Shown here in pieces: positions 3,922 through 63,303 of a stretch of 64,000 bases of DNA (position 1 is its first letter; every line of letters starts with the position of its first letter). The notes beneath the pieces are model-generated. The model searched no databases, was not told where the DNA came from, and saw nothing but the letters and a program-made list of their open reading frames with translations. Source of the DNA: Actinostola sp. cb2023 (Eukaryota > Cnidaria > Anthozoa > Actiniaria > Actinostolidae). The stretch spans positions 175,665 through 239,664 of the forward strand of contig JAUJYZ010001547.1 of assembly GCA_033675265.1 (NCBI GenBank). The letters run 5' to 3'. The position numbers and the translations under genes were made by a program.

Positions 3922-12129
<8,208 letters not shown>

Positions 12130-41738: not shown

Positions 41739-42309
41739 TGTGAAATGAAGCATACGCACTGACGATTTGTGGTATTTGTTTGCTCAGCATAAGAAAAAAC
41801 AATAAAAAGTAGGTGCAGTTGGCCAGTTTTATATCAACACAGATACCATACTTTGTTGAATGAATGAATGAATGAATGAATGAATGCCTTTATTTACTCT
41901 AAAATTACAACAATATTGACATATATAATTTATAATAATGTAAAAAGAGAAAAGAGAATCAACTCTATTAATTAAGAGTAATGTTAGAGCCTGAGGGCTA
42001 AATTAATTGACAAATGTTCTGTTAAGGTTTATGTGTTTGGTGTTTGTTTATCGATGTGGGATACTGTGAAATCGAGCATGCGCACTGGTGATTTGTGTCA
42101 TTTGTTTGATCAGCGAAATAAAAGCGCAAGATGCGAGTGTAGTTGGCCAACATTATATCAACACAGATACCATGTATTGTTCCAGCCCTTTGTCAATCTG
42201 TATCAATATTGCATCCAATCCTGGTGACGTTACAAACTAATACGCCTATAAAAGAGCAAGAGAGAAGTGATCATCCTTACTTGATTAAGAGTGTCCACTT
42301 ACTACAACC
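41739..42309 (+). promoter_or_regulatory. Conserved 5' region of secreted-protein gene 1, with duplicated module and TATA box
   Basis: A TATAAAA box lies at 42247-42253, 57-63 bp before the ATG. A CRE-like TGACGTTA lies about 22 bp upstream of it. A module of about 115 bp occurs twice, at 41739-41858 and 42064-42186; it holds GCATGCGCACT, a TTTGTTTG-type core, AGTTGGCCA and TATCAACACAGATACCAT. The whole region is nearly identical to those of the other two genes in the cluster. Confidence 0.8.
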
Positions 42310-44249
42310 ATGAAGTCGTCCATTGCTGTTATTTTGCTGTTCGTAGTTCAAATCTACGCTGAAGATGTTCTTAGTGAATATATGTTAGACGATAGTGAGG
42401 ACGATCCAGACAGACACCTCTATGTGGTAAGAAAACCAAACTCTTATTATTTTATTGTACTTTTTTTTTACACTATGATAAAGTTTCATTCTACACACTT
42501 GATTGTTGTAATCCGACGCAGTCTCTACTATTTAAGTCATTTAACCACTAATCCCTATCAGTCTCTACTAGTTTAACCACTAGTCCCTATCAGTCTCTAC
42601 TAGTTTAACCGCTAGTCCCTATCAGTCTCTACTAGTTTAACCGCTAGTCCCTATCAGTCTCTACTAGTTTAACCGCTAGTCTCTATCAGTCTCTACTAGT
42701 TTAACTACTAGTCCCTATCAGTCTCTACTAGTTTAACCGCTAGTCCCTATCAGTCTCTACTACGGTCACCGCTAGTCCCTATCAGTCTCTACTAGTTTAA
42801 CCGCTAGTCCCTATCAGTCTCTACTAGTTTAACCACTAATCCCTATCAGTCTCTACTAGTTTAACCGCTAGTCACTATCAGTCTCTACTAGTTTAACCGC
42901 TAGTCTCTATATGTTATTATTCATTCAATCTGATTGGTTGAGGAAGTCATTACACATTACCGTATTGCATTGTCTAATGATTTAATATTTCATACAAATA
43001 TTCCACAGCAATGCAAGATTGATTTTTACGATTGCATTCGACTCGGAAAAGTGGACAAAACCAAATGTCTCAAGGTTTATACAAACTGCTTAGCTGGTAT
43101 CCTCCCTACAATACCCCCCAGAATAGTAAGTATCACTAACACTACTCGTGTTACCTCGTCATAATATCACATGACTGTTCTAGTAACCCTATCAACAATG
43201 GAACAATGAAGTATATATTTACTGAACTAAACTTATTTCGTCACAAGTCCAATTGTAATGCCGAACTGAAGAGCTGCCTTGCTGGTGCCAGTGGTCTGTG
43301 GGAAAAAGCAAAATGTTTCACTGGATATGCAAAATGCTTGATTCCAACTGGACACCCTTTCTTTGTAAGTATGTCGAACACCGAATAAGCCACGTATAGC
43401 TCTCGCCATTCCTACTCGGTCCAATTCACCACAGGTAACCCACTCGCCTTGCGGATACAATTAAGTAGTATAGTAGTCCCTCATCGTTTCTATTTCTCTT
43501 CTTTGATGCTGACTAAAACATGTTTATACTTATTGCAGAAATGCAAAATAGAGTTGGTTAAGTGTGTTAAGGATGGAAAAACAGGAAAAGTCCGGTGTAT
43601 GTTGAACTACACGAACTGCATGGCACAACTTCTCCCCTCTCTCCCCACCTACCTGGTAAGTTTTGCGACTATTGCCGGCAGTTGGACATGCAACTCCATT
43701 GGCCGCCATCATGTCGCCTTTACAAACATGTAAAAAAAATGATTTTGGAAAAGTACCCTTGTTTAGTTACAATATTAAAGAGCGTGTCCCTTCACTCGAA
43801 AGGGTTCTTCCACCGGGCGGACAATGCGCTCTTTAAAACCCTCCCTCCATCAGTGCTTTGCGGAGTGTTTAAATCTACACTGAGCTACTCAGTGTCATGG
43901 AGAATCGAACCGAACACCTCTCGCTTAGAAGGCCGCGCACTAACCAACTAAACCATCCTTACTCCTCGATCGAAACCCCCAAGCAAAAATAATCGGCTTT
44001 TTGATCGAACGTCGTTCCTGAGTTCCGTTACAATATATAACTAAACATTGAGATCTGCCGTCGAAAATGCCCCACCATTTTAGGTAGGATCTCACTTCCA
44101 AAGCCTTGTTGGATCTAATAAATGTCGTTTTCTTTTTGCAGTCGAAATGTAACTCCGCTCTGATGACGTGCATTATAAACGCTGTTGGCGTACTAGATGC
44201 CAGTCAGTGTTCTGTTGATTATGGCAAATGCGTAAAGAAGGGCCGTTGA
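42310..44249 (+). CDS. Secreted protein of four tandem C-x6-C modules (cluster gene 1)
   Basis: Five exons, all phase 0: 42310-42426, 43009-43125, 43248-43364, 43539-43655 and 44142-44249 (TGA). Exons 1-4 are exactly 117 bp each. The product is 191 residues. Exon 1 is a signal peptide (MKSSIAVILLFVVQIYA, cleavage likely after YA) plus an acidic stretch with EDVLSEYMLDD. Each later exon is one module with four Cys: spacings 6-10-6 (exon 2), 6-12-6 (3), 6-10-6 (4) and 6-12-6 (5). Exons 2 and 4 (type A) start Q/K-C-K-I and end with a Pro-rich tail; exons 3 and 5 (type B) have C-N-[AS]-x-L. The i/i+7 Cys spacing suggests disulfide-linked helical hairpins (inference). The C-terminus is KKGR. AATAAA lies at 44311. 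I recognise no known family. Confidence 0.87.
42520..42912. repeat. 32-bp minisatellite in intron 1 of cluster gene 1
   Basis: A unit containing CTCTACTAGTTTAACC and GCTAGTCCCTATCAGT is repeated about 12 times. The same unit fills intron 1 of cluster gene 2 (50681-51225), in the same orientation relative to the gene. Confidence 0.95.
43770..43972 (-). mobile_element. tRNA-derived SINE, antisense in intron 4 of gene 1
   Basis: On the minus strand the head has TTAGTTGGTTAGTGCGCG (box A region), CTTCTAAGCGAGAG and GGTTCGATTCTCC (box B). The body includes TGTAGATTTAAACACTCCGC. Related copies lie at 48953-49035 (head only) and 57848-58096 (full length). Confidence 0.75.
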
Positions 44250-44589
44250 TAATGTACATATCGTCACATGCAAGATACCGTCTGGAAACCGGACTACTCA
44301 TTAACTAACCAATAAAATATTAAAATATCAATCTTGATGTCATTTATTCCAGTCTCAAAGTCACATAGAACAAATCTTTTTCAGACTAATTACTAGATGT
44401 CACTTTTTTGAAGAAATTACAAGATTGTAAAACTTACGTTGAAGACTTTTTGATGAGCTGAAGTATGTTCACTTTTTTGAAGGCCGGGTGAGCTGAGCTG
44501 AATTATGTTAAAGCTGCTATTATGGAACAAAACTTTGATATTTTTTGTTGTTGTATTCCTAAAACGTGTCAAAATGACTTGAAATTTGG

Positions 44590-45065
44590 ACCATCAATAG
44601 AACTTGGGTAGATAAAGAGCCTTAACTCAAAACATTTGCATTAGGGGTGGTCACGTGACCAGTTAGAGAGATAAAAGCAATACACAATTATTTTAAGCCG
44701 TTGGTGGCGAGTTCAAGTGATAAATTCTAGCTAGTACCTTAAAGCTATTTCGTTGTAAGTGCTTTATAGATTGACGTTCGGAATGGGTGACTTTCATTTC
44801 TTTTTAAGGAGATATGGGGTAAAACAGGTCACGTGACCGGATAATCAAAATCATTTTTATTCAAATTCTCTTTTCAAACAAACAAGAGCCACCCACACCG
44901 AACGACAATCTATAAAGTACTGGGAGATAAATATATTTAAGGTATTTGTTAGAATTTCCTACTTGAACTCGCCACCAACGAGCTATTTTTCTGTTTTCCA
45001 ATGTAATGACCGTGACGTCATAGGTCACGTGATCATAAAAAGCTTAGCACTAAAAAGTTAAGGAC
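44590..45065. mobile_element. Foldback element downstream of gene 1
   Basis: GGTGGCGAGTTCAAGT and TTATAGATTG-type segments in the left half are mirrored at 44885-44984 (ACTTGAACTCGCCACC). Outer GGTCACGTGACC and AGGTCACGTGATC motifs also face each other. No ORF. Confidence 0.75.
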
Positions 45066-45404
45066 CCGAAATCCAATGTATGCACTAGTTTTCGTTTAAA
45101 CATAACAAATGTTTGCTGAGTTATTGAACAAAACGTGAATTCTCAAGAAGGTCCAAAACCCAGGCCTTTTAAAACATACTTGAGAAATCTGGACAATCAA
45201 CGAATTTGGAGATGGTTCTATCAAAATATATTACATAACGTAGCAATTTTCAATACAGTAAATGTATGGGAGAAATCATTTTTTCCTAATTTTTCGCCTT
45301 ACTAGATGTTGCGTTGCAGCTGCTCAGCCGGATCTTTTCCAATGTCATTTTTTGAAGAAAGCCCGAAGGATTGTAAGTTAAAAAATCTGGACAATCGACA
45401 CACG

Positions 45405-45720
45405 ACAAATCGATCAACCTCAACATTCAAAATATGAGTTTACAGTAAAACCACCTTAAAATTAAAAGAATATCGTATCCATGTAGAAAATTATTTAAAT
45501 TTTGAAACTGAGCGGATTTTGTCAAATCATTCAAGAAAAGAACTCAGTTCAAGTGTAAAGAAAAAGAATAATAAAAGGATAAACAGCAAAAAAAAAATTT
45601 GAAAAATATATATTTGACCGGACCGGGACTCGAACCCGCGCGCTACTTCGGAAATTGTATGCAAAACACTAAAAATCGACCATACTCCCAGACTTAAATG
45701 CTGAGTCACCGTATGTTACG
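45405..45720 (-). mobile_element. SINE-like repeat, copy 1 (second at 46803)
   Basis: On the minus strand a box B (GGGTTCGAGTCCCGG) is followed by a 3' body with GGATACGATATTCTTTTAA and TTACTGTAAACTC. The body recurs at 46803-47015, where the box B part is cut off by a hairpin. Confidence 0.65.
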
Positions 45721-45917
45721 TATAGGACGAAGGTTTCGGCCTCATCCGCGCTATCGGGTAGTACACAATCAGCGAAGTAGTCAAAGAGGGAGGGAACAGT
45801 CGTATCCTAGTCCTAAATGACTGCCCCTTACCACTTCAGCTATCTGTACTTCCGATTGTTTTCGAGGGTAAATTTAGTAGTCTATCGTATAACGGTTATT
45901 GTTATGGAAATTTATTG

Positions 45918-45992
45918 GCAAACGTGGTCCTCTGGTTAAGTGCTGGGATTTGGAAACCAGCGACCCGGGGTTCGACTCTCGGTGCGGCCATG
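45918..45992 (+). mobile_element. tRNA-like sequence (SINE or tRNA pseudogene)
   Basis: TGGTTAAGTGCTGG (box A region), an anticodon-like stem GCTGG/CCAGC, and box B GGGTTCGACTC, followed by a T-rich stretch. The acceptor stem does not close properly, so a working tRNA is unlikely. Confidence 0.45.
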
Positions 45993-46477
45993 ATTTCTTC
46001 TTTTTTTTCCTGCACTTTTTTCTCTTGTTTACTTTATTTTATTTCTTCAGTTGTTTTTCTTTTTCCGTTTTCATTGTAAAAAATCTTATCACTGAAGTTA
46101 ATTTCAGTTGCGTACCCCACTAAAATCTAAGCCCCGCCTGTTTTATTAATGAAATGATATATCACTGTTAATAATCATAGTACGATGAAGCTTATCTGAT
46201 TAAAAATAAATTCAGTATTTAACTAGCTGAATATTATCCGGTGAAACGTTTCAACTGTCTGTCATGGATTGTCCAGCCTCTCGCGGCCAGATCAGTGCGC
46301 TCAGCTAGTCCCAATTTGTTGAGCAAGTTTTCCCTTGTTGACATGTTCGAGGATTTGTTGATCTTGACACGGATTTCAGACGACGATGAGTTTGCAGCGA
46401 CTTTCAATTCTTTATTCTGTGTTATTGGATACGACATTCTTATGACTGGACAATGATCCCATGCAAGGAACACAAAT

Positions 46478-46685
46478 GCAAGAATGGTTTATAGTCCATT
46501 GAAAATCGTTGATTTGGGCCATTTTTGCGCACTTTGCACAAGCTATAGTCCATTGAAAGACGTCATTTTGGGCCATTTTTGCGCACTTTGCATGGACTGT
46601 AGTCCATTCAAAAATCGTAATTTTGGAACATTTATGCGAATTTTGCATGTCCAATGAAAATCGTCATTTGAGGCCATTTTTGCGG
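46478..46685. repeat. Imperfect tandem repeat of about 65-75 bp, three copies
   Basis: ATAGTCCATTGAAA, GGGCCATTTTTGCGCACTTT and a GCAT tail recur three times with about 80% identity. Confidence 0.8.
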
Positions 46686-46802
46686 CAGAGATATTTCGTA
46701 TGTATGGGCTTCCTGTGGTAAAAGAGGCGCGCATCACGAGTTAATACTGGGTTCCCTGTGGAATCTAATCTCACTGCACAATATACGCGTTGTTCCTAGT
46801 TA

Positions 46803-47020
46803 GTAAATTACGACAAACCGATCAACCTCAATATTCAAAATAAGTTTACAGTAAAACCACCTTAAAATTAAAAGAATATCGTATCCATGTAGAAAATTAT
46901 TTAAATTTTGAAACTGAGCGGATTTTGTCAAATCATTAAAGAAAAGAAATTCAAGTGTAATGAAAAAGAATAATAAAAGGATAAACAGCAAAAAAAAAAT
47001 CGAAAAACTAAATTGACCGG
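46803..47020 (-). mobile_element. SINE-like repeat, copy 2
   Basis: It shares AACCTCAATATTCAAAATA-type sequence, CCACCTTAAAATTAAAAGAA and AAAGGATAAACAGCAAAAAA with 45405-45620. It stops at a TTGACCGGACCA junction and runs into a GC-rich hairpin. Confidence 0.75.
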
Positions 47021-47027
47021 ACCACGC

Positions 47028-47120
47028 GGGGACTGATCAGAACACGAGAGAAGTGTTAGGAGAAGCACGACGCGTAACGGAGTGCTTCTCAACACTTCTC
47101 GAGTGTTCTGATCAGTCCCC
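47028..47120. repeat. 30-bp-arm hairpin
   Basis: GGGGACTGATCAGAACAC (47028 on) is mirrored at 47091-47120 with two mismatches. An inner AGAAGCAC/GTGCTTCT pair extends the stem. It begins next to the truncated SINE head. Confidence 0.88.
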
Positions 47121-47164
47121 AAGTGCTATAAATCTGCACATAGCACAGCGGACGAGTTCTCTAT

Positions 47165-47330
47165 TTCTTTTATAAAATACAATTATGATTTTAAGGCAAG
47201 TTTTCAATTCTGTTCGTTACAAAAATGTTTGAATATCTGCGCGCGCGTGCTGTGTGCTCTCATAAAGCACGCGGAATACGCATCCTTTGGCCAATCAGAG
47301 CGCACGTTATATCATAGTTATTTTATAAAA
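47165..47330 (+). repeat. Dispersed repeat, uninterrupted copy of the 22808 repeat
   Basis: ATACAATTATGATTTTAAGG, ATATCTGCGCGCGCGTGCTG and CATCCTTTGGCCAATCAGAG match the split copy at 22848-23275. Here GATTTTAAG occurs once, so this copy represents the empty site. Confidence 0.85.
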
Positions 47331-47540
47331 AGTGTTATAGATCGATAAATAAATGGATGAATGGTTGGAGTGATGAGATGGATAAACGGTTGGAAAGAAT
47401 GGTGGATAGATGGATGCATGAGTTGATTGAAGGAGAGAAGGAAGGATGGGATAGATAGATAGAACGGAGAAAAGGATTTATGGAAAGGATGGGAGAAAAG
47501 GAAGGGTAAAAAAATACATGGGATAGATGGTGGATGATAA

Positions 47541-47671
47541 TAATTTAAGGGAGGGGCTCAGCTAGAGTCTTAGTTCCTTTATGACTATAAATCAAAGTGA
47601 TTGTTGCTTTGTACATGCACATATATTTTAATATATGAGAACTGTTATTACATATAAGGGGTCTTGTATCT
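47541..47671 (+). repeat. Dispersed repeat (reverse copy at 58712)
   Basis: TTAAGGGAGGGGCTCAGCTA, GAGTCTTAGTTCCTTTATGA and ATGAGAACTGTTATTACA recur in reverse at 58712-58838. Confidence 0.8.
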
Positions 47672-48690
47672 TATGTATGGCGAGCAAAATTTAGTTGCCA
47701 TTGAATCAACCAATTTAAAGAATTATAGGGCTACATTTTAAAAGATCTTGTTCTTAATCTATATACACGAAGAGACCAGACAACGGGCGATGTGGGCATG
47801 AAATGGATGAACTAAGATCAAGACCAATTATGGGAAACTGAGGAATCAAGAAATCTGTGCTGTTTACGTAGACCGGCTTACGGGGACTGGGCACGAGTTT
47901 ACCGGTCACCCTGTGTTAGGTTTCCCAGTCTTTTTGGCCGTGTTACAAAATGGAGGACAAAGTTTACATTCATTTACTCGAGTTGCTGTAAGTTTGGATG
48001 GATTTTTCGATAAAAATCGTACTTTTAAGCGAAAAATATTTACAGGGTTTCCAAATATGGTAAGTACATTGCCCAAATATGGTAGTAGAAAAGCTGGCCG
48101 AGCAAACAGCACATTTTCATGGGCAATTCGGCGAAATTCATTCATTCGACCTCAAACTTGGAATCACGCTTGGTGTTTGAACGAGATATGGCGGAGGTTA
48201 ACGTGAATTTTCAGAATTTTCAAAAGTTTCAGATCATGCATCCAATTCAGATCGACCGTTGTCAACGTTTTTTTAAATAGGCCTAGGTGTAACTTGCTGA
48301 ATAAGATCAGCTTGTACGTTTCACTACAAGCATCTGCGCTTAATAAACACACCCAGTGTACCTTCACTTGTAAAAACATTTGTAAACTGGACATTGCAGC
48401 AGAACGGGTTTGAGAACAGCAACATTTTCAAGCACAAATTCAGCTGTCATTAGCTATATTTATAGGAACGTGTCAGACAGTTTGTAGAGGCGAGAATTAC
48501 TGAGTTCGATTCGCAAAGGATTGTGGTAAAATGGACGACCGCCATTGTTTTTTTAGTACATTAGATTCTCCCAACTATCCCTTGAAACTGGCATAAATGA
48601 CATCCAGACTGATATTTAAATATCATTTTATTGGTTAGTTAATGAGTAGTCCTTCCATACGATATCTTGCATGTGACGATATGTACATTA
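47672..48690. other. Intergenic tail-to-tail region of genes 1 and 2, distal part
   Basis: No gene is recognised. 48195-48300 (AATTTTCAGAATTTTCAAAAG, CCGTTGTCAACGTTTTTT) is a diverged reverse copy of 26645-26725. AATAAA for gene 2 (minus strand) is at 48627-48632. Confidence 0.55.
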
Positions 48691-51429
48691 TCAACGACCC
48701 TTCTTTACGCATTTGCCATAATCAACAGAACACTGACTGGCATCTAGTACGTCAACAGCGTCTGTAATGCACGACATCAGAGCGGAGTTACATTTCGACT
48801 GCAAAAAGAAAACGACATAGTTTATTAGATCCACCACACCTAAAATGGTGGGGTATTTTCGACAGATCTCAGTCATTGTTTGTTATATTGTAACGGAACT
48901 CAGGAACGATGTTCGATCAAAAAGCCGATTAGTTTTGCTTGGGGATTTCGAGGATGTAAGGGTGGTTTAGTTGGTTAGTGCGCGGCCTTCTAAGAGCGCG
49001 AGTTGTGCCCGGTTCGATTTTCCAGGCCGATAAAAAGGGTTTGGAGAAGTGCATTTCTACATGTTTGTAAGGACCAGAAGACGGGGTGTGTGGCTAGGGG
49101 TCGGTACGTGGAGGTGTGTGTCCTACCACTAATAGTGACAAAACTTACCAGGTAGGCGGGGAGAGAGGGGAGAAGTTTTGCCATGCAGTCCTTGTAGTTC
49201 AACATGCACCGGACTTTTCCTGTGGTTCCATCACCGAAACACTTGACCAAATTTATTTGGCATTGCTACAATAAGCAAACGATGTTCATCAGTGTCGGTT
49301 ATACAGGTCTCTACACGTGACCATACTGGACAATTTCCATTCGTCTGATAGGCTCATAAATTATTCATGAGTTTGATAAATATACTTACAATGGATGGGT
49401 GTGGTTTTGGAAGCAAGCATTTTCCATACATGGCAAAACATTGAGCTTTTTCCCACAGACCACTTGCACCAGCAAGGCAGCTCTTCAGTTCGGCATTACA
49501 ATGGACCTTGTGACGAAATAAGTTTAGTTCAGTGAATATATATATTATTTTTGTAAAAAAAAAAAATTAAAAACTTTTTTTTTTAATATTAAAAAACATT
49601 AAAAAAATAGATATATTATTTACATATTCTTCGTGTAAATTTCGTGTATATTTCATGCGGTAAGGTTAGTGTAAATTCGGTAACGTAATAACCATTTACA
49701 GTTTCAATTCCGATTATATTCAATTTGAATTTCAATTCAATTTCAGCGAAATTCTATGTAGATGTCTAAAACCATACATACCTAAGAATGAATCAAATAA
49801 TTTACACGCAATTCACACAGAGCACGAGATTGACACAAAATGTATACGGAATTTGTACAGAATGTATACGGGATTTACATAGAATGTATACGAGATTTGT
49901 ACAGAATGTATACGGGATTTGTACCGATAATGTATATGGGATTTGTACCGATAATGTATACGGGATTTGAATAGAATGTATACGAGATTTGTACAGAATG
50001 TATACGAGAATGGTACACAATGTATACGAGATTTGTACAGAATGTATACGGAATTTGTACAGAAGTACACGGGATTTGTACAGAATGTATACGAGAATGG
50101 TACACAATGTATACGAGATTTGTACAGAATGTATACGGAATTTGTACAGAATGCACACGATATTTGTACAGAATGTATACGGGATTTGTACATAATGTAT
50201 ACGGGATTTGTACAGATCTATTCGGGATTTGTAAAGAATGTATACGGGATTTGCACAGAATGTATACGGGAGTTGTACCGGCGAAGAGCGTACATTTTTG
50301 CAGTTTGTGGTGATGTGGGTTTCTTAGTAGTTGTGATACAGTGTTAGTGATACTTACTACTTTGGGGGGTACTGATGGGAGGAGACCTCCAGCTAGGCAG
50401 CTTGCATAAACCTTGAGACATTGGCTTTCCTTCTTTCCGAGTCGAAGACAATCGTACAAATCAATCTTGCATTGCTGTGGAATACAGTATGTGGTTCTAA
50501 TTGTGAACACTGTGTACCATGGTTACCAGAGGCTTTTATTTTCTCTCTCTCTAAGCTCTACGAGAGCGCCTACGCCTACGGTCTACTGTATTTGTATAAA
50601 ATAATAAATCATTAGACAATGCAATACGGTAATGTGTAATGACTTCCTCAACCAATCAGATTGAATGAATAATAACATATAGAGAGTAGTTGTTAAACTA
50701 GTAGAGACTGATAGGGACTAGTGGTTAAACTAGTAGAGACTGATAGGGACTAGCGGTTAAACTAGTAGAGATCAACTGATAGGGACTAGTGGTTAAACTA
50801 GTAGAGACTGATAGGGACTAGTGGTTAAACTAGTAGAGACTGATAGAGACTAGTGGTTAAACTAGCTAGTAGAGACTGATAGGGACTAGTGGTTAAACTA
50901 GTAGAGACTGATAGGGACTAGTGGTTAAACTAGTAGAGACTGATAGGGACTAGCGGTTAAACTAGTAGATACTGATAGGGACTGCCGGTTAAACTAGTAG
51001 AGACTGATAGGGACTAGTGGTTAAACTAGCTAGTAGAGACTGATAGGGACTAGTGGTTAGTAGAGACTGATAGGGACTAGTGGTGACTAGTAGAGACTGT
51101 ACTCCGACTCTACTAGTTTAACCACTAGTCCCTATCAGTCTCTACTAGTTTAACTACTAGTGACTAGTAGTTAAACTAGTAGAGACTGATAGGGACTAGT
51201 GGTTAAACTAGTAGAGTCGGAGTACAACAATAATCAAGAGTGTACAGAATGAAACTTTATCACTAGTAACTTATGGATATAAGAGTTCAGTGTATTTAGC
51301 TGTATTTCTTACCACATAGGGGTGCCTGTCTGGATCGACAATACTATCGTCTAACATATATTCACTAAGAACATCTTCAGCGTAGATTTGAACTACGAAC
51401 AGCAAAATAACAGCAATGGACGACTTCAT
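48691..51429 (-). CDS. Secreted protein of four tandem C-x6-C modules (cluster gene 2)
   Basis: Five minus-strand exons, in order: 51429-51313, 50474-50358, 49506-49390, 49265-49149 and 48798-48691 (TGA). Exons 1-4 are 117 bp each and all junctions are phase 0, giving 191 residues. The signal peptide is identical to gene 1 (MKSSIAVILLFVVQIYA). Cys spacings are 6-9-6, 6-12-6, 6-10-6 and 6-12-6; exon 2 has one residue fewer between the inner Cys pair but keeps 39 codons through a longer tail (GGLLPSVPPKV). The exon 3 acceptor is read as CACAAG|GTCCAT by phase and comparison. Exon 5 is almost identical to gene 1, while the exon 3 tail (LLPKPHP) is like gene 3, so the gene is a mosaic. It is tail-to-tail with gene 1 and head-to-head with gene 3. 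Function unknown. Confidence 0.87.
48953..49035 (+). mobile_element. SINE head remnant in intron 4 of gene 2
   Basis: TTTAGTTGGTTAGTGCGCGG, CCTTCTAAG and CCGGTTCGATTTTCC match the SINE in intron 4 of gene 1. It has the same antisense orientation relative to the gene, which implies insertion before these two genes duplicated. Confidence 0.75.
49815..50285. repeat. GTATACGGGATTTGTACAGAAT minisatellite in intron 2 of gene 2
   Basis: A unit of about 23-24 bp (AATGTATACG plus GGATTTGTACAG) is repeated about 20 times with variants. Many open frames on both strands cross it and are artefacts. Confidence 0.93.
50681..51225. repeat. 32-bp minisatellite in intron 1 of gene 2
   Basis: Units of ACTAGTAGAGACTGATAGGG and ACTAGTGGTTAA repeat about 14-16 times. 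The last 127 bp flip orientation and form a perfect palindrome. Confidence 0.95.
51099..51225. repeat. Perfect 127-bp palindrome (63-bp arms, 1-bp centre)
   Basis: 51099-51161 is the exact reverse complement of 51163-51225, with a single G at 51162 between them. The outer ends are GTACTCCGAC and GTCGGAGTAC. The arms contain minisatellite units in opposite orientations. Confidence 0.95.
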
Positions 51430-52005
51430 GGTTGTAGTAAGTGAACACTCTTAATCAAGTAAGGACGATCACTTCTCTCTTGCTCTTTTATAGGCGTATT
51501 AGTTTGTAACGTCACCAGGATTGGATGCAATATTGATACAGATTGACAAAGGGCTGGAACAATACATGGTATCTGTGTTGATATAATGTTGGCTAACTAC
51601 ACTCGCATCTTGCGCTTTTATTTCGCTGATCAAACAAATGACACAAATCGCCAGTGCGCATGCTCCATTAGTATCCCACATCGATAAACAAACACCAAAC
51701 ACATAAACCTTAACAGAACATTTATCAATTAATTTAGCCCTCAGGCTCTAACATTACTCTTAATTAATAGAGTTGATTCTCTTTTCTCTTTTTACATTAT
51801 TATAAATTATATATGTCAATATTGTTGTAATTTTAGAGTAAATAAAGGCATTCATTCATTCATTCATTCATTCATTCATTCAACAAAGTATGGTATCTGT
51901 GTTGATATAAAACTGGCCAACTGCACTCACTTTTGTATTGTTAATTATTATGCTGAGCAAACAAATACCACAAATCGACAGTGCGCATGCTCCATTTCAA
52001 TAACT
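51430..52005 (-). promoter_or_regulatory. Conserved 5' region of cluster gene 2
   Basis: On the minus strand TATAAAA is at 51492-51486 with the CRE-like TGACGTTA just upstream. The duplicated module occupies 51551-51672 (proximal) and 51881-52005 (distal), separated by the ATG-AATG microsatellite segment. The order matches genes 1 and 3. Confidence 0.8.
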
Positions 52006-52023
52006 TCTTGTTGGAATATTTGA

Positions 52024-52137
52024 AATGGATTCGATTTGGTCTGAACTTCAGGCGTTGAGTGCCGAACTACAACGTGAAATGCCTATGTTTGACGACGCAA
52101 AGAGAACGAGAATGTCAGTTCGTAATTTGTCCAGATA
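52024..52137 (+). other. Short ORF, 37 codons, unassigned
   Basis: ATGGATTCGATTTGG opens a 37-codon frame with a plausible amphipathic composition (WSELQALSAELQRE) and ends in TAG. It lies in the head-to-head interval of genes 2 and 3. There is no support beyond composition; it may be a fragment of a mobile element gene. Confidence 0.15.
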
Positions 52138-52369
52138 GTTGTTTTCAGTCAAACGGACCACAAAAAGACGATGTCATTCATGAAATTTAAAGGCGGCGCA
52201 AATTTAATGAAAACGTGGAAAATGAAACAATTATGAAAATAATAAACAATAAAACACTTTATTCGAACTTCGTCGTCCTCGACGTCGTCGTCCTGGTGCT
52301 TAAGGTCCCTAGTATAAACGGACGGTCGACCAAACTCTGTATTCAAGTCTAAAAATATACTAAGCTGCC

Positions 52370-52595
52370 ATTATCTTTTCCAGGTTCTTATTGACCTTGT
52401 TTTGTCCTAATTTTGTGTGTCCGTGTTTGAATTACTGCATTACAATGTTTACCCAGATGAGAGCTGTGTTTGGTTGCCTAGACATGGACGGTGGAGCCGT
52501 TGCAGAAGTGTATGGGGGTGGAGAGGGGGACGTATGGGGGTGGAGAGGGGGTGGAGATGGGGACGTATGGGAGTGGAGAGGGGGACGTACCTATT
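52370..52595 (+). repeat. Repeat flanking the cluster, copy 2
   Basis: It matches 40594-40800 in the same orientation, including the GGGGGTGGAGAGGGGGACGT repeats. The two copies bracket genes 1 and 2 (about 11.8 kb apart). Confidence 0.88.
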
Positions 52596-52782
52596 TAGAA
52601 AAACGAACGAATTCAATTTGTGAATATATGCGAAATCTTGGCATAGCACATTCGCTTCTAGCAATCTGGCCAGTATTCTAAAGCTCAGCTAATGCAAGGA
52701 GTTATTGCCATTTAGCATACTTCAATATTGAGCTATCCACCATGCCGTAATCGCAAAACATTTAGATAGTCCTTAGTAGCAA

Positions 52783-52835
52783 GAAGAAGAAGAAGAAGAA
52801 GAAGATGATGATGATGATGATGAAGAATTAAGAAG
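52783..52835. repeat. (AAG)n/(ATG)n microsatellite
   Basis: AAGAAG units change to ATGATG and back to AAGAA over about 50 bp. Confidence 0.85.
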
Positions 52836-52974
52836 AAAGATAAATTTTAAAGTAAATATGTCAAGATAAACGCACATATATCTCTAAATAGTGGGGGGTG
52901 AGGCTACCCTCATTTTTTAACTGGGGGGAGAGACGCTCGACTGAACTCCTACAACGGCTACCACTGCCTGTGTT

Positions 52975-53638
52975 AGGTACATTGTGAAATGGAGCATGCG
53001 CACTGACGATTTGTGGTATTTGTTTGCTCAGCATAATAATTAACAATACAAAAGTGAGTGCAGTTGGCCAGTTTTGTATCAACACAGATACCATACTTTG
53101 TTGAATGAATGAATGAATGAATGAATGAATGAATGAATGAATGAATGAATGAATGGATGAATGAATGAATGAATGAATGAATGACTTTATTTACTCTAAA
53201 ATTACAACAATAGTGACATATATAATTTATAATAATGGCAAAAGAGTAAAGAAGAATCAATCAATCAATCAATCAATCGTTTATTTATCCACGTAGAAAT
53301 GAACTATATTTATTAAGAGTAATTTTAGAGCCTGAGAGCTAAATTAATTGATAAATGTTCTGTTGAGGTTTATGTGTTTGGTGTTTGTTTATCGATGTGG
53401 GATACTGTGAGCATGCGCACTGGTGATTTGTGTCATTTGTTTGATCAGCGAAATAAAAGCGCAAGATGCGAGTGTAGTTGGCCAACATTATATCAACACA
53501 GATACCATGTATTGTTCCAGCCCTTTGTCAATCTGTATCAATATTGCATCCAATCCTGGTGACGTTACAAACTAATACGCCTATAAAAGAGAGAAGTGAT
53601 CGTCCTTACTTGATTAAGAGTGTCCACTTACTACAACT
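52975..53638 (+). promoter_or_regulatory. Conserved 5' region of cluster gene 3
   Basis: TATAAAA is at 53582-53588, with the CRE-like TGACGTTA upstream. The two modules lie at 52979-53103 and 53406-53520. Between them are an AATG array (53101-53183) and a CAATCAAT array (about 53254-53278) that the other two genes lack or have in shorter form. Confidence 0.8.
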
Positions 53639-56600
53639 ATGAAGTCGTCCATTGCTGTTATTTTGCTGTTCGTAGTTCAAATCTACGCTGAAGATGTTCT
53701 TAGTGAATATATGTTAGACGATAGTGTTGTCGATCCAGACAGGCACCCCTATGTGGTAAGAAATACACTGAACTGTACACACCTATTGCAAAAATCGTTG
53801 TCCCCACTGAAAGCAACAAGCAAGAAGCTCACGACCGCAAAGGGCATTGGGACTTTCTCCTTATTCATTTATTCATAGATATTTTGACAACATGCATTTT
53901 CAAATGGCCGAATAGTTCCAAATGATTGCTATTCAACGCTCGTAGGGATAACTTGTCAAGTATATGTACCACGGATAAATTAATTAATTAGGAGATTCCC
54001 AAAGTCCTTTATGGTCGTCAGCTTCTTGCTTGTTGCTTTCGGCCCGGACAACGATATTTGGAATAGGTGTATATATATATATCCATAAGTTATTAACTAT
54101 ACATTACCGTATTCCGTTGTTTAATGATTTCATATTTTATACAAATATTCCACAGCAATGCAAGATTGATTTTTACGATTGCCTTCGACTCGGAAAAAAG
54201 AAACAAACCCAATGTCTCCTTGAATACAAGAACTGCATAACCGTTCTCGTCCCATCAGTACCCCCCAAAGTAGTAAGTATCAATAACATGATTTACACAG
54301 AATATTCACTCGTTGTATAAGAAATGTATACGGAATTTACACGGAATTTACACGGAATTTACACGGAATTTACTCGGAATTTACACGGAATTTACACGGA
54401 ATTTACACGGAATTTACACGGAATTTACACGCAATTTACATGGAATTAACACGGAATTTACACGGAATTTACACGGAATTTACACGGAATTTACACGGGA
54501 ATTTACACGGAATTTACACGGAATTTACACGGAATTTACACGGAATTTACACGGAATTCACACGGAATTCACACGGAATTTACACGGAATTTACACGGAA
54601 TTTACACGGAATTTACACGGAATTTACACAGGATTTACACGGAATTCACACGGAATTTACACGAGCACCACTGAGTGCTCTACGGTAATTGAAACAACAA
54701 TGGACCAATGACATATTAATTAACTGAACTAATTAAAACTTATTTCGTCACAAGTCCAAGTGTAATGCCGAACTGAAGACCTGCCTTGCTGGTGCCAGTG
54801 GTCTGTGGGAAAAAGCTAAATGTTTTGCCTCGTATGGAAAATGCTTGCTTCCAAAACCACACCCGTACTTTGTAAGTATATATATACCACCAAATATGGC
54901 ACAGGCAGCCCAACCATTACTTTTGAGGCCACTAAATAATTAAATAAAATGATATTTGCGTCTTTTTATGGGTTTCCTGTGGTAGAGCGCGCGCGCGCGC
55001 ATAATATATACATAAAGGATTGGTGAACGCCTAGCGTGCATCTGTCGAGTTTTAGATGCACGCGGGAGGTTGCTAAGCACGAAAGAAGCGAAAGAGTCGC
55101 ACGAGGCGAAGCACTCAAGAAGCTACTCTAGCTTCTTGAGTGCTTAGCAACCGACCAAGTGCATCTAAAACTCGACAGATGCACGCTAGGCGTTCACCAA
55201 TCCTTTTATAACATAGCCACAATCAAATGTTAGATAATTACTGATTTGTTTATTTTATATTAGAAAACTAACTTTCTTGGCCGATCGCGCGATGAGTTAA
55301 GTCTTAAGACATACCGACGTAAAGAAAAAGCTCAATAAGTTAATTATAAAACGGCAAATTAACACCACATGTTCGGTCATATTCATACTAGTTCGAGCTC
55401 TGAATGAAATCGAAATAAGTACAAAGTTTTTAAAGTAAATAAGCTTACATTACAAAAGTTTTTGAATACATCTGATTGTTGTACTTGACCGTTGAGTACT
55501 TGCGATTTGAGCTAACATTATTTGCAAGTTTTCGGCAAAGAAACAGGTTGTTTTTGAACGATGGGAAAAATTGAATCCTCTTTGAAAATCCATTAACATT
55601 TCTTGTAGACGTTTTGAGATCCCTTTTTCATTTGCTAGTTTGGAGATGGTTGAGAATTCGACGTTTGCACGTTTCCCAAGCTTCAATCATCGACTGTGTT
55701 AGTGTGTACTTAGACTACTTACAGTTGTGTAGTTTGGACTCAGTCGAAGAACGAGTGTTGTAGTCTTGTAGTCAATCTCAGTTCATTTCAATGGCCACAT
55801 TGAGCTGTACCGAATCAGAATATGGTGATTTTGAGCCAGTGTTTCTACAGATTGATTTTGGTAAACCCTGCAGCTTCACTCGAGTCTTGTTGAATCACAA
55901 CGAAGCGACATTACAAACACCAAAACATCAGAATTTCCACATCTTTTTCTCCGATATTTGAAATATGCCGTGGCACTTGACTTCTTCTCAGAATGATAAA
56001 GCGTAATTCCCTTAAATGCATTGTTTTCCTGTCTTTTTTGAGGTTCATCTCGCTCTTTGAAGCGTCTTTCAGTTCATGAAACTATTTGAACAACAACAGT
56101 TGGCAAGTGATTTTCCATGACGTCATTAGCGTGCATCCATGGAGAATTGGTGCACGCTCTATTAGCCAATCAGAGCGCGCGTTATATGTTAGATATGTTA
56201 TAATACGTATTATGTTGGGTTCCCTGAGTTGAGTAACGTATATTAATTGTTGGGCTTCCTGTGTGCGTCCCGCAAGACGCGGCCTACCACAGGAAACATA
56301 TAAAAAAGGCGGCAAATATCATTTTATTGAATTATTTTGTAGCCTCAAAAGCAATGGTTGGGCTGCCTGTGATATGGCTGATATCACTAGCTGGTTTATT
56401 CCTTCTCGGTCCAACTGACCACAGGTAACCCACTCGCCGTGTTTATGGATACAAGTAGTACAGTAGTCCCTGAACGTTTCTATTGTTCTTCTTTGATGCT
56501 AACTAAAAATATTGTTTGATTATTGTAGCAATGCAAGATAGATTTGACTACATGTTTCAGGGATGGAAAAACAGGAAAACTACAGTGCATGTTGAACTAC

Positions 56601-57212
56601 ACGAAGTGCATGGCACAATTTCTCCCTAGTCTTCCCCCCTACCTGGTAGGTTTTGTGACTATGATTAGCAGTAGAAGCCCATAAGTAGGAGCATCCATGT
56701 AGCATTAAAATCTGTCACGACGTTTGAACAAGTTTGACTATTTTTAGAACACGAAATTGATCAATCACTGTTGCTGTAAATTAACGAGTTACGGCAAATA
56801 AAACGAGTTGCTGCAAATAAAACGAGTTGCAGCAAATAAAACGAGTTGCTGCAAATAAAACCGGAAGTGCACAGTCATTGGTCAATTTCGAAAAATCGTG
56901 TTCTAAAAATAGACAAACTTGTTCAAACGCCGTGACGTAGTATGGATGCTCCTACTTATGGGCTCCTAGTAGTATAGGTTATCCACTTCCACCGGCCCCC
57001 AACCCCAACCCCCGCCCTCTCGCCCCTACAAACATTCTAGGTAAGATATCCCCTCAAAAGCCTTGTTGGATCTAATAAACTATGACGTTTTCTTTTTGCA
57101 GTCGAAATGTAACTCCGTTCTGATGACGTGCATTAATGACGCTGGTGACTACCTAGACGTTAGCCAGTGTTCTATTGATTATGGGAGATGCGTTGAGAAG
57201 GGCCGTCGTTGA
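53639..57212 (+). CDS. Secreted protein of four tandem C-x6-C modules (cluster gene 3)
   Basis: Five phase-0 exons: 53639-53755, 54156-54272, 54755-54871, 56529-56645 and 57102-57212 (TGA). Exons 1-4 are 117 bp each; the last is 111 bp and ends KGRR, giving 192 residues. The signal peptide is identical to genes 1 and 2. Cys spacings are 6-10-6, 6-12-6, 6-10-6 and 6-12-6. Exon 2 carries more changes (CLLEYKNC, ITVLVPSVPPKV) and exon 5 reads CINDAGDYLDVSQC, so this is the most diverged member. Introns have been remodelled by elements: a palindromic MITE in intron 1, a minisatellite in intron 2, a large palindrome in intron 3 and a foldback in intron 4. AATAAA lies near 57263. Function unknown; a secreted structural, immune or venom-type protein are all open. 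Confidence 0.87.
53779..54072. mobile_element. Palindromic MITE, copy 2, in intron 1 of gene 3
   Basis: It is about 90% or more identical by eye to 28348-28641 and has the same inverted termini. It sits where genes 1 and 2 carry the 32-bp minisatellite. Confidence 0.9.
54306..54664. repeat. GGAATTTACAC minisatellite in intron 2 of gene 3
   Basis: An 11-12-bp unit GGAATTTACAC is repeated about 30 times. The array opens with AATGTATACGGAATTTACAC, linking it to the unit in intron 2 of gene 2. Confidence 0.95.
55014..55207. mobile_element. Palindromic element in intron 3 of gene 3
   Basis: The outer arms (AAAGGATTGGTGAACGCCTA, then GATGCACG-type) are mirrored at 55155-55207, and the inner arms ACTCAAGAAGCTA/TAGCTTCTTGAGTG meet near 55132. 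It is nearly a complete palindrome of 194 bp. Confidence 0.88.
55208..56528. other. Remaining intron 3 of gene 3, nothing coding recognised
   Basis: The sequence is AT-rich. A segment with CCAATCAGAGCGCGCGTTATAT (56163 on) is the same motif that ends the dispersed repeat at 23237 and 47292. The 78-codon minus frame at 55450 is not supported. Confidence 0.5.
56676..56964. mobile_element. Foldback MITE in intron 4 of gene 3
   Basis: The termini AGCCCATAAGTAGGAGCATC are inverted at the right end. The interior has GTTTGAACAAGTTTG inverted and about four copies of a 22-bp unit with AAATAAAACGAGTTGC. Confidence 0.88.
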
Positions 57213-57550
57213 TAATCGTCACATGCAAGATATCGTATGGAAGGACTACTCATTAACTAACCAATAAAATGATATTTAAATATCAGCCTTGATGTCATTT
57301 ATGCCAGTTTCAAGGGATAGTTGGGAGAATCTAATGTACTAAAGAAAACAATGGCGGTTGTATATATTTTACCACAATCCTTTACGAGTCGAACTCAGCA
57401 CTACTGGCATCTATAAATTCAACGAGCTACTTTTATTCATCAGTGAATAAGCTGAAGTTTTGTCAGAATTCTGCTGATTGTCAATTCTTTAGAATTGTTT
57501 TATTGCATAAATTTAGTTTTCATTCGAAAGTTTGTCCACACCAAGACATA

Positions 57551-59581: not shown

Positions 59582-62500
59582 TTATCTTAGATCATACATG
59601 TTTCCCCCAAACCACCATTGGGTAGTACTAGCCTCGTTTTCAGTACCTCTAAAATAAACATTACGGGTATGTGGACCTTCACAATAAAAACCAAAGTTAT
59701 TTTCCCCGACAATTGTACCAGAATAGGGCTTAAATTTACACTCTCCCTGAGCACTATCAATATGAAGGGCCTGTTTGCCTTTGCGCTGCCAAAACTGAGC
59801 TTGTGTTTTGTAACCTGAGAATCCACGAATGTTGATATAGTCAACATCCTTGCATTCGCCGTTGCCTTCAAATTCAATGATGTCAAAGTCTTCAAACTTT
59901 CCTCTCACGTAGTCACGGAAGTCATTTCCATAGGTGGAGAACCCGGTAGTTGCTCGCCAATAGGAGGACTGGTCAGCAATTGTAAGCATTCGTTGTTTTG
60001 ATAGTCGATAGGAATCCCAGTTGGGCGAGTTCTCGTGGACAGGAACACTTTGTGAGAGCGAAGACTGACAGAACGCTGTCAAGTTGCTGTGTCGGACGGA
60101 ATGAGACATGATCAGAGTCCACGCGAACCCTGGTTCAGAGTGGAAGTCACACCAGATCTGGTAATGTTCGCCATTGCCATCAGATACCGTATAACCACCA
60201 TTGGTGCAGTAGCCACGGAGGCGATAGTCTAGACAGGATTTGAAGTCCTAAACGAACAATCAATAATGAGTAACATAACCAACGACAAGGATGATTAATT
60301 AAAGTGTGATGATTTTTTTTTAATCGATTACATATGAAGTGAATAGTGACAGAGATGTTTCAGTATTTTGTGATTTGAGCTTCGCATTTGCGAGTTATAA
60401 AGGTTTGTAATCGTGATATTTGGTGACGTCAGTTTGTTTTTAATTTATTATACAAAAGCACCCTTGTGCAAATTATTGACATTTTTAATCTGGCAAAAAG
60501 TTTTCTAAAACTTATTTACATGATGTTAAACTTTTTTGTTATATTACAGAAAGGAGTGCTGCTTGAAAAAAAGTTATGGCAAAAAATCAACTGACGTCAC
60601 CGAATTAGCATAACTCGCAAATGCGAAGCTCAAATCACAAAATACTGAAATATCCCACTATTCACTTCATATGTAAAATATTAAATGCTTTAAATGACCC
60701 AAGAAAATGCTTGGGAGAGTGAGAAGATAAGAAAATGAGCCCAAATGGAAAAAGATTGAATTCGTATCTGATCACCGTTGGAAGTTCCACCAGCTGAGGT
60801 ACTCCAGCGCTCACTGCAAGCAGGCTGTAAGCGCATGGCTTCGATGCTTATAAAACATTAGGTTCCTATATATGACATCGATCTTGTAGGTCAATAAACT
60901 ACTTCACGATTCTGTTGAGTACCCATGAACAATGGTACCAAGTTGAGGTTGGCTTTGTGCAAATACAATAATTGAATGAAAGAAGGCCAACCTTGACTTG
61001 GAACCATTGTTCATGGGTGCTCAACAGAACCGTGAAGTAGTGTATTACTTTAAGAACACGAACTGATTTTGTATGAATAAATAAATAAATTCCATTAGGA
61101 GAAAAAATTCAATACTCCAGTTTCGAGTTTGTTTAAACACCGCTGTACTCCTTGACAAAAGACGCCTTTGCTCAGGCTTAGCCTCAATCCAGAGAATAAC
61201 CCGTGCAATTAAAAATGGTTTCTATTGTTGAATGTCAACACTTTTTCGCGTTCTCGTTGGTATTTGTAAATAATGTACACTGAATTAAGGCTGAGCAAAT
61301 GCGTCTTTTGTCAAGGAGTACAGCGGTATCTAACAATAATTTACACTCAGATTGAGGCTAAGGCTGAGCAAATGCGTCTTTTGTCAAGGAGTACAGCGGT
61401 ATCTAACAATAATTTACACTCAGATTGAGGCTAAGGCTGAGCAAATGCGTCTTTTGTCAAGGAGTACAGCGGTATCTAACAATAATTTACACTCAGATTG
61501 AGGCTAAGGCTGAGCAAATGCGTCTTTTGTCAAGGAGTACAGCGGTATCTAACAATAATTTACACTCAGATTGAGGCTAAGGCTGAGCAAATGCGTCTTT
61601 TGTCAAGGAGTACAGCGGTATCTAACAATAATTTACACTCAGATTGAGGCTAAGCCTGAGCAAATGCGTCTTTTGTCAAGGAGTACAGCGCTATCTAACA
61701 ATAATTTACACTCAGATTGAGGCTAAGGCTGAGCAAATGCGTCTTTTGTCAAGGAGTACAGCGGTATCTAACAATAATTTACACTCAGATTGAGGCTAAG
61801 GCTGAGCAAATGCGTCTTTTGTCAAGGAGTACAGCGGTATCTAACAATAATTTACACTCAGATTGAGGCTAAGGCTGAGCAAATGCGTCTTTTGTCAAGG
61901 AGTACAGCGGTATCTAACAATAATTTACACTCAGATTGAGGCTAAGGCTGAGCAAATGCGTCTTTTGTCAAGGAGTACAGCGGTGTCTAACAATAATTTA
62001 CACTCAGATTGAGGCTAAGCCTGAGCAAATGCGTCTTTTGTCAAGGAGTACAGCGGTATCTAACAATAATTTACACTCAGATTGAGGCTGAGCCTGAGCA
62101 AATGCGTCTTTTGTCAAGGAGTACAGCGGTATCTAACAATAATTTACACTCAGATTGAGGCTAAGGCTGAGCAAATGCGTCTTTTGTCAAGGAGTACAGC
62201 GGTATCTAACAATAATTTACACTCAGATTGAGGCTAAGGCTGAGCAAATGCGTCTTTTGTCAAGGAGTACAGCGGTATCTAACAATAATTTACACTCAGA
62301 TTGAGGCTAAGGCTGAGCAAATGCGTCTTTTGTCAAGGAGTACAGCGGTATCTAACAATAATTTACACTCAGATTGAGGCTGAGCCTGAGCAAATGCGTC
62401 TTTTGTCAAGGAGTACAGCGGTGTCTAAACAACTCGAAACTGGAGTATTGAACATTCTGAACCACAGCATGGCCGCCGTAGGAACCCTATGTTCATCCAG

Positions 62501-63303
62501 CTATTGCTAGATATCAATCAGCTGTTAAAACTCCTTGAATCTCATTATTTGCTTCAAATGACGGGCAAACACTGCCCTCCATGTGCTATCAAGCAGAGAG
62601 TATTCTATTGAAAAGGTGCAATTCAGCTGATAAAAATTCCTCACGAGACCGGAAGTGACGTCTAATGAAATCCAGCTATTAAACAATACCTGCTTCTTTT
62701 TCTTGGGTAGATATTGTTCTTCCTTTTGGACTGGAACAGCATAAGGATTAAAGATGCCAGCTTGAAATGCAAACAAGGGGACTTTGGTGGGATCACATGC
62801 CGATGGCTGGAATTGCGGCTGGGCGAATGGTTGTGGTGCAAATGATTGTGGTGCAAATGGTTGTGGTGCAAATGGTTGTGGTGCAAATGGTTGTGGTGCA
62901 TATTGTTGTGGGGCATATGGTTGTGGGGCATATGGTTGTGGGGCTCCTGGATATGGTTGTTGGGCTCCTGGATATGTAAGGGGTTGTCTTTGGTGATGTC
63001 CGCCGCCGTATCTTATGCCTGTCCTTCCAGGAAACTCGGATACAGGTCTTGGTGCTTCATACCTTTGTTGAGGCATCACAGATGGACGATATGTCAATGC
63101 ATAGGTCAAAGCAGGGTTGTATGATACTGGTCTAGGAGCGACAAATCTTTGTTGACCAATTACTGGAAGTCGCGAAACTATGGGTTGTGGGTACCCTGTG
63201 GCGGGGTTAAACTGAAGCCAGGGTGATCCATAGCGGGCTGGTATTACTTGAGGTCGATTGGCGGCCCATAATGGTCGAGGTGCAGCAAAAGATCGCTGTT
63301 GAC
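59582..63303 (-). CDS. Pro/Gln-rich protein with C-terminal fibrinogen-like domain, 5' end missing
   Basis: Two minus-strand exons join in phase 0: 63303-62690 (614 bp) and 60247-59582 (666 bp, TAA). They encode about 425 residues. Exon 1 enters in phase 1 after TTCGTAG, so upstream exons, presumably with a signal peptide, are missing. It encodes Gln/Arg/Pro-rich sequence with recurring QQRxxAPRP motifs, then pentapeptide repeats (APQPF/APQPY, about 62820-62960), then a basic KKKKQ end. Exon 2 starts DFKSCLDYRLRGYCTNGGYT, with QIWCDFHSEPGFAWTLIMSH: the opening of a fibrinogen-related domain (Cys, GxYxI-like strand, WC/YCDM equivalent, WT). Later GEC, FYCEGPH and QWWFGG follow. It resembles coral skeletal organic matrix proteins with fibrinogen-like domains (established as a class; the match is by eye). 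Lectin-like recognition or a matrix role is likely. Confidence 0.8.
60330..60674. mobile_element. Foldback MITE related to 58837
   Basis: ACATATGAAGTGAATAGTG and CAGTATTTTGTGATTTGAGC on the left are mirrored on the right. The internal CAGTATTTTGTGATTT is shared with 58837-59285. It lies in the intron of the fibrinogen-like gene. Confidence 0.88.
60898..61041. repeat. Palindromic hairpin, about 60-bp arms
   Basis: ACTACTTCACGATTCTGTTG and CCATGAACAATGG-type sequences are mirrored at 60985-61041 with a few mismatches. Confidence 0.85.
61110..62450. mobile_element. TIR element containing a 73-bp tandem array
   Basis: The termini CAATACTCCAGTTTCGAG (left) and the inverted copy (right end 62450) continue inward with GCTGTACTCCTTGACAAAAG and its inverse. 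Between about 61290 and 62400 a 73-bp unit, containing GCAAATGCGTCTTTTGTCAA and ACAATAATTTACACTCAG, is repeated about 15 times with very few differences. Arrayless relatives lie at 39905-40128 and (partial) 8994-9103. It is in the intron of the fibrinogen-like gene. Confidence 0.93.

What the first reader, a model, noticed from the sequence alone, without database searches (positions are those of the whole stretch)
42310..57212. Three-gene cluster of an unrecognised secreted protein built from one-exon, four-Cys modules
In all three genes exons 1-4 are exactly 117 bp and every junction is phase 0. Each of exons 2-5 encodes one module C-x6-C-x(9-12)-C-x6-C. Invariant exon length, symmetric phase and conserved Cys spacing make it a shuffle-ready modular design. 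The twin C-x6-C spacing (i, i+7) predicts two helices cross-linked by two disulfides. I know no named family with this pattern.
Basis: partly seen in the sequence, partly recalled or inferred. Interest (0 to 1): 0.92.

Follow-up and report, generated by a model that had tools for sequence, protein, structure and literature searches.

The report
Unnamed anemone-coral tandem four-cysteine proteins
A deep-sea anemone carries three neighbouring genes for a probably secreted protein built from small four-cysteine blocks, one per exon; relatives exist in another anemone and in reef corals, I found no name or study of them, and what they do is still unknown.

Summary
The window is Actinostola sp. (sea anemone). 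Three genes (+, -, +) have five exons each; exons 1-4 are 117 bp in all three, 12 of 12 introns are GT-AG and phase 0, and each of the 12 exons 2-5 encodes one C-x6-C-x(9-12)-C-x6-C module. Gene 3 equals a deposited hypothetical protein. Relatives were found in Actinia, Desmophyllum, Pocillopora and Porites; no Pfam, NCBIfam or PDB family was reached. Two corrections. First, there are two module types, A and B (46:38, support 100/99); in 15 of 15 proteins counted, A comes first, B last, B never follows B, A may repeat. The unit is A(1-3)B, not one free module. Second, exon length is not invariant: another locus has 120, 117, 168, 117, 189, 117, 108 bp. Best reading: a hexacoral family of secreted, disulfide-stapled tandem hairpins, perhaps a defence-type effector. 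Function is inference.

The parts
42247..42254 (+). TATAAAAG, 63 bp before the gene 1 start codon
   Evidence: a consensus match, not a tested promoter
42310..42426 (+). gene 1 exon 1: hydrophobic N-terminus (probable signal peptide, by eye) and acidic pro-region
43009..43125 (+). gene 1 exon 2: module A
43248..43364 (+). gene 1 exon 3: module B
43539..43655 (+). gene 1 exon 4: module A
44142..44249 (+). gene 1 exon 5: module B and stop
44311..44316 (+). AATAAA, 62 bp after the gene 1 stop
48627..48632 (-). AATAAA, 59 bp after the gene 2 stop
48691..48798 (-). gene 2 exon 5: module B and stop
49149..49265 (-). gene 2 exon 4: module A
49390..49506 (-). gene 2 exon 3: module B
50358..50474 (-). 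gene 2 exon 2: module A (loop x9, one residue added after the module, still 117 bp)
51313..51429 (-). gene 2 exon 1: probable signal peptide and acidic pro-region
51485..51492 (-). TATAAAAG, 63 bp before the gene 2 start codon
53582..53589 (+). TATAAAAG, 57 bp before the gene 3 start codon
53639..53755 (+). gene 3 exon 1: probable signal peptide and acidic pro-region
54156..54272 (+). gene 3 exon 2: module A
54755..54871 (+). gene 3 exon 3: module B
56529..56645 (+). gene 3 exon 4: module A
57102..57212 (+). gene 3 exon 5: module B and stop
57263..57268 (+). AATAAA, 51 bp after the gene 3 stop

Best explanation
Three duplicated sea anemone genes for a secreted protein: probable signal peptide, acidic pro-region, then modules A-B-A-B. 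Each module is one exon and, I infer, an autonomous pair of antiparallel helices joined by two disulfides inside the module (Cys1-Cys4, Cys2-Cys3). A Pro-rich hinge joins A to the next module and B closes the unit. Most modules are net positive while the pro-region is acidic. The most likely use is as a stable, multivalent extracellular binder with a defence-type role (mucus, gland or venom). Shown: gene structure, the two module types and their order, charge pattern, distribution among hits, fixed cysteines amid changing module residues. Inferred: secretion, fold, disulfide pairing, binding, defence. I give about 0.7 to the stapled hairpin and about 0.35 to the whole chain including defence.
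For: Gene structure and motif. Intra-module disulfides: every module has four Cys, odd module numbers occur, and Cys outside modules occur in only 4 of 21 proteins, at places I read as signal peptide, retained intron or truncation. Helix-like C-x3-hydrophobic-x2-C: 90 of 90 distinct second halves and 57 of 68 distinct first halves have a large hydrophobic residue at +4; no Pro in 158 distinct C-to-C cores; mean moment at 100 degrees not reached by 500 of 500 shuffles (first halves) and by 483 of 500 (second halves). A/B split 100/99 and order rule in 15 of 15 proteins. Modules net positive in 67 of 78, N-terminal pro-region acidic in 15 of 15. Over six Actinostola copies 59 of 151 module columns vary but 0 of 16 Cys columns (P 2e-4), against 3 of 39 columns in exon 1; module dN/dS 0.85, 0.67, 0.64 between the three genes.
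Against: No structure model. The averaged first half has its largest moment at 180 degrees (0.43 against 0.28 at 100), as an alternating strand would; Chou-Fasman means do not separate helix from strand. Net charge of the whole chain after residue 18 is negative in 3 of 15 proteins and zero in 1, and 7 of 78 modules are negative. dN/dS is below 1, and with fixed 80-nt flanks exons are better kept than introns, so no positive selection is shown. No proteome, venom or tissue evidence was found. No activity is known.
Confidence: 0.35

Rival explanations
1. A structural extracellular protein (mucus, matrix, nematocyst or skeleton): stapled hairpins pack through the Pro hinges into short stiff rods strung on acidic linkers.
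For: Up to eight modules per chain, conserved Pro-rich hinge after A (P..P in 40 of 46 tails), fixed order, repeat spacing mostly 36-40 residues within a unit, as in helical repeat proteins.
Against: Short chains of four modules exist in anemones; module residues change fast between duplicates; no evidence of any tissue.
Confidence: 0.27
2. A precursor cut into several single-unit peptides, as in plant alpha-hairpinin cassettes.
For: Signal-like N-terminus, acidic pro-region and linkers, repeated cationic modules; the layout resembles multimodular alpha-hairpinin precursors (passages of PMC7191063).
Against: I saw no dibasic cleavage signal in the N-terminal pro-region or inter-unit linkers printed (by eye); the Pro hinge between A and B is conserved, which argues for keeping the pair joined.
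Confidence: 0.15
3. A different small disulfide fold, with strands in the first half or with disulfides between modules.
For: First-half periodicity at 180 degrees; propensity means near 1 for both states.
Against: Second halves look helical at 100-120 degrees and not at 160; odd numbers of modules and repeated A modules favour closed modules.
Confidence: 0.15
4. A very distant branch of a characterised family that sequence searches miss.
For: Sub-threshold matches only: CVNH in P0006 (22.6 against a cut-off of 24.5 bits) and DUF matches, CagY_M and Phospholip_A2_2 in the C369 relative (16.9 against 21; 12.5 against 22).
Against: None of 14 proteins scanned reaches a Pfam cut-off, none of 7 an NCBIfam cut-off; the CVNH match is in one member only; a PDB profile search with 8 sequences gave no hit to E 10, and a single-sequence search one hit at E 0.015 that I take as chance.
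Confidence: 0.1

Closest known systems
Plant alpha-hairpinins and scorpion kappa-type CS alpha-alpha peptides
   Same: Four Cys per module as two spaced pairs, multimodular precursors with a signal peptide and 2-12 modules (passages of PMC7191063); our predicted pairing Cys1-Cys4 and Cys2-Cys3 is theirs.
   Different: Their motif is C-x3-C twice; ours is C-x6-C twice. The Tk-AMP-X genes have no introns and the MiAMP2c gene one intron outside the modules; ours has one exon per module. No sequence link found.
Acrorhagin I and octocoral helical-hairpin peptides (U-GRTX-Esi20, 21)
   Same: Anthozoan, secreted, helical hairpin held by disulfides (section 20, part 1 of 2, of PMC11896702; passages of PMC11722136).
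   Different: Acrorhagin I has four disulfides in one small peptide and the octocoral genes are intronless; ours have four Cys per module and one exon per module. PDB sequence searches did not list acrorhagin I.
[quoted passage not shown]
   Same: Secreted proteins with tandem Cys-rich domains, a broad descriptive class (passages of PMC6262176).
   Different: A class by layout, not a homologous family; in the passages seen its only cnidarian example is a Kunitz-type protein.
Helical repeat proteins with cysteines: CagY and Hcp/SEL1 of Helicobacter
   Same: Tandem helical motifs of 31-39 residues with regular Cys, CagY motifs also called A and B (passages of PMC2581425).
   Different: Bacterial; two Cys per module in CagY (passages of PMC10706595); only sub-threshold CagY_M matches here.
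Mitochondrial twin CX9C / CX3C proteins
   Same: Paired Cys spaced by whole helical turns (passage of PMC5404111; helix spacing recalled).
   Different: Different spacing and compartment; ours has a signal-like N-terminus.
Sea anemone 8 (SA8) toxin family
   Same: Actiniarian, clustered genes, one inverted within a cluster (passages of PMC10210398).
   Different: SA8 has ShK-like Cys spacing; ours does not.

Membership tests
alpha-hairpinin / CS alpha-alpha | C-x3-C ... C-x3-C | tested here: not met
   All 110 modules were found by, and fit, C-x6-C ... C-x6-C
alpha-hairpinin / CS alpha-alpha | antiparallel helices with Cys1-Cys4 and Cys2-Cys3 | not testable with these tools
   structure prediction off
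alpha-hairpinin / CS alpha-alpha | several modules in one secreted precursor | tested here: met
   2-8 modules per protein in 21 proteins; the signal peptide was judged by eye only
acrorhagin I type helical hairpin | sequence similarity to the solved peptide | tested here: not met
   not among PDB hits to E 10
acrorhagin I type helical hairpin | helical hairpin fold | not testable with these tools
SA8 / ShK | ShK-like Cys spacing | tested here: not met
   module spacing; no Pfam hit of that kind
mitochondrial twin CX9C / CX3C | Cys pairs nine or three residues apart | tested here: not met
CagY repeat | Pfam CagY_M above its cut-off | tested here: not met
   10.5 bits in P0009, 16.9 and 15.3 bits in the C369 relative against 21
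SCREP (descriptive class) | tandem Cys-rich domains in a secreted chain | tested here: met
   secretion inferred

The most novel reading that the evidence does not exclude
The twin C-x6-C module is a distinct stapled alpha-hairpin with Cys pairs two helical turns apart (between the one-turn CX3C and three-turn CX9C kinds), used by hexacorals and built up exon by exon under a strict A(1-3)B order into secreted effectors whose surfaces change while the cysteines stay fixed.
Probability: 0.33. Interest if true: 0.7.

Novelty: new variant of a known kind. Interest (0 to 1): 0.5.

Why it matters
It outlines a hexacoral protein family that, in my searches, has no name, no profile and no paper. Genes 1 and 2 were not returned as deposited proteins by the three protein searches. 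The family has a simple testable grammar, a clear predicted fold and a visible exon-by-exon growth history. If the hairpin is right, it adds a compact disulfide scaffold to those known in anthozoans.

Tried and rejected
Module exons evolving faster than introns: suggested by local alignments, but these keep only the alignable pieces of intron. With fixed 80-nt flanks the module exons are 83.9% identical (1150 of 1371) against 60.7% and 61.3% in the flanks, so I withdrew it.

Idealised helix geometry fitted every Cys spacing tried and built its second helix by mirroring: not evidence. Chou-Fasman means: not discriminating.

Prokaryotic or viral relatives: 29 and 20 stretches matched a peptide pattern, none encoded a relative by tblastn.

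Literature, ten searches. Those aimed at this family: the Actinia locus name (0 papers), C-x6-C names (155 papers, 20 listed, none of the listed about this; the term twin CX6C had 0 occurrences in the listed ones), six module peptides (0 papers). The rest were for context. Passages only were seen of 13 papers, and section 20 part 1 of 2 plus passages of PMC11896702. Supplementary tables, where expression might be listed, were not open to me.

Rows left out: the module tree and the order count used 15 of 21 proteins (84 of 110 modules); P0003, P0007, P0012, P0020, P0022 and P0023 were left out as near-duplicates, short, truncated, chimeric-looking or with retained-intron-like stretches. P0007 has one module with x8 that looks like an A first half joined to a B second half. 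Module types were set by loop length plus three names taken from the tree. The charge count used 15 proteins chosen separately (78 modules).

Full report
Where it is. The window is contig C1280, 175665-239664, of a 424-Mb assembly. Gene 3 is identical over 192 residues to QZH41_018424 of Actinostola sp. cb2023. I take it to be the hydrothermal-vent Actinostola genome of PMC10803348 (424.3 Mb; passages seen). Its genes were predicted from homology and de novo, and the words RNA and transcriptome have no occurrence in the main text held, so the deposited model is not transcript evidence.

Gene structure. Gene 1 (+) 42310-44249, gene 2 (-) 51429-48691, gene 3 (+) 53639-57212. Exons 1-4 are 117 bp in all three; exon 5 is 108, 108 and 111 bp with the stop. 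All 12 introns are GT...AG and phase 0; 11 donors are GTAAGA or GTAAGT, one GTAGGT. Each of the 12 exons 2-5 holds one four-Cys module. In gene 2 exon 2 the loop is one residue shorter and the stretch after the module one longer, so the exon is still 117 bp. TATAAAAG lies 57-63 bp before each start and AATAAA 51-62 bp after each stop. The N-terminus looks like a signal peptide by eye; no signal-peptide program was run.

Other loci in this genome (36 matches). Contig C965 carries all three genes in the same order and relative orientation; the main collinear pieces are 93.5-98.1% identical (a list filtered to at least 93% and 200 bp): probably the other haplotype, possibly a recent duplication. 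Contig C1098 carries the six-module protein QZH41_017076 (P0002), exons 120, 117, 168, 117, 189, 117, 108 bp, 6 of 6 introns GT...AG and phase 0. So one exon per module and phase 0 hold at all loci that I modelled, equal length does not. Contig C369 has more distant relatives, two modules in one exon, and other single modules followed by Arg-Pro-rich stretches; one of its exons finds gene 3 exon 3 at E 2e-4.

Relatives elsewhere. In three protein searches (the last scored only the best 8,000 candidates) the hits with a species name are Actinostola, Actinia tenebrosa, Desmophyllum pertusum (locus tags OS493_013871, 013872, 013875, 013876, on one contig length), Pocillopora verrucosa and meandrina, Porites lutea and evermanni: anemones and stony corals. 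Four of them encode 321-343 residues on contigs of 1,097-1,146 bp (P0005, P0006, P0009, P0018); the C1098 gene of 311 residues spans about 3.1 kb, so these contigs are most simply spliced transcripts, though intronless genes are not excluded. Eight ORFs picked by eye run from an exon end in frame into V (P0013-P0016, P0020, P0024-P0026), as a phase-0 GT donor would. No Nematostella or Exaiptasia protein was listed; the search needs shared five-residue words, so absence is not shown. Prokaryote and virus scans found no relative.

Two module types and an order. Twenty-one proteins hold 110 modules. Cysteines outside modules occur in 4 of the 21 (P0005, P0006, P0020, P0023), and P0011 and P0019 have extra Cys inside modules. 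A maximum-likelihood tree of 84 modules from 15 proteins separates 46 A from 38 B at 100/99 (few columns, bootstrap not settled). Both types occur in anemones and corals, so the split looks older than that divergence. In these 15 proteins each starts with A and ends with B; steps are A-B 38, B-A 23, A-A 8, B-B 0. The proteins are related, so they are not 15 independent trials. After A there is a Pro-rich hinge (P..P in 40 of 46 tails, 17 of 38 after B); the linker after B is variable and often acidic. The unit is thus A(1-3)B.

Fold. The Cys of each pair are seven residues apart. Position +4 is a large hydrophobic residue in 90 of 90 distinct second halves and 57 of 68 distinct first halves (10 others Ala, 1 Gly), and none of 158 distinct cores has Pro. 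The mean helical moment is not reached by any of 500 shuffles for first halves and by 17 of 500 for second halves. Against: the averaged first half peaks at 180 degrees and propensity means do not decide. The hairpin is likely, not shown.

Evolution and charge. Over six Actinostola copies 59 of 151 ungapped module columns vary, 0 of 16 Cys columns (P 2e-4), and 3 of 39 columns in exon 1. Module dN/dS between the three genes is 0.85, 0.67, 0.64. Between the two copies of each gene, non-synonymous to synonymous codons are 2:1, 7:11 and 7:2, too few for a claim of positive selection. 67 of 78 modules are net positive, 7 negative; 15 of 15 pro-regions are acidic; but 3 of 15 whole chains are net negative.

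Reading. A probably secreted tandem protein of closed four-Cys modules whose other residues change readily: I favour a defence-type effector, with a structural rod and a multi-peptide precursor as rivals. In layout it is nearest to plant alpha-hairpinin cassettes (passages of PMC7191063) and in setting to anthozoan helical-hairpin peptides (PMC11896702 section 20 part 1), but Cys spacing and gene structure differ and no sequence link was found. I therefore call it a new variant of a known kind, with the fold and the function open.

Noticed in passing
L011 (C369:447000-454000) 3275-3607 and 460-789 (-); C369 455272 and 456137 (-): Distant relatives of the family with x12-x13 loops; two modules in one exon, other modules followed by Arg-Pro-rich repeats. 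Possibly a second branch of the family.
   Followed up: partly
L009, L010 (C965:266500-276400 and 285500-292500): A second copy of the whole three-gene cluster with an expanded gap between genes 1 and 2; probably the other haplotype left in the assembly.
   Followed up: partly
window 42540-42910 and 50679-51099: The same 32-bp tandem repeat fills intron 1 of genes 1 and 2 (11.6 and 13 copies); gene 3 intron 1 is 400 bp and has no row in that listing.
   Followed up: no
window 49835-50278 and 54330-54663: Tandem repeats of 22 bp and 11 bp in intron 2 of genes 2 and 3, a main reason for the unequal intron lengths.
   Followed up: no
window 44235-44249, 48691-48705, 57195-57212: The three proteins end in KKGR, KKGR and EKGRR, which resembles a C-terminal amidation signal (recalled); the Actinia, C1098 and coral relatives printed do not end so.
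   Followed up: no
P0007: One module joins an A-like first half to a B-like second half with x8 and still has four Cys: a recombinant or an assembly chimera.
   Followed up: no
window 11776-12126 (+): ORF with a C2 domain (Pfam E 5.5e-15).
   Followed up: no
window 59585-60247 (-): 221-residue open frame rich in Cys, Trp and Tyr, no Pfam match at E 0.01.
   Followed up: no
window 62528-63349 (-): 274-residue open frame with repeated Ala-Pro-Gln-Pro stretches, no Pfam match at E 0.01.
   Followed up: no
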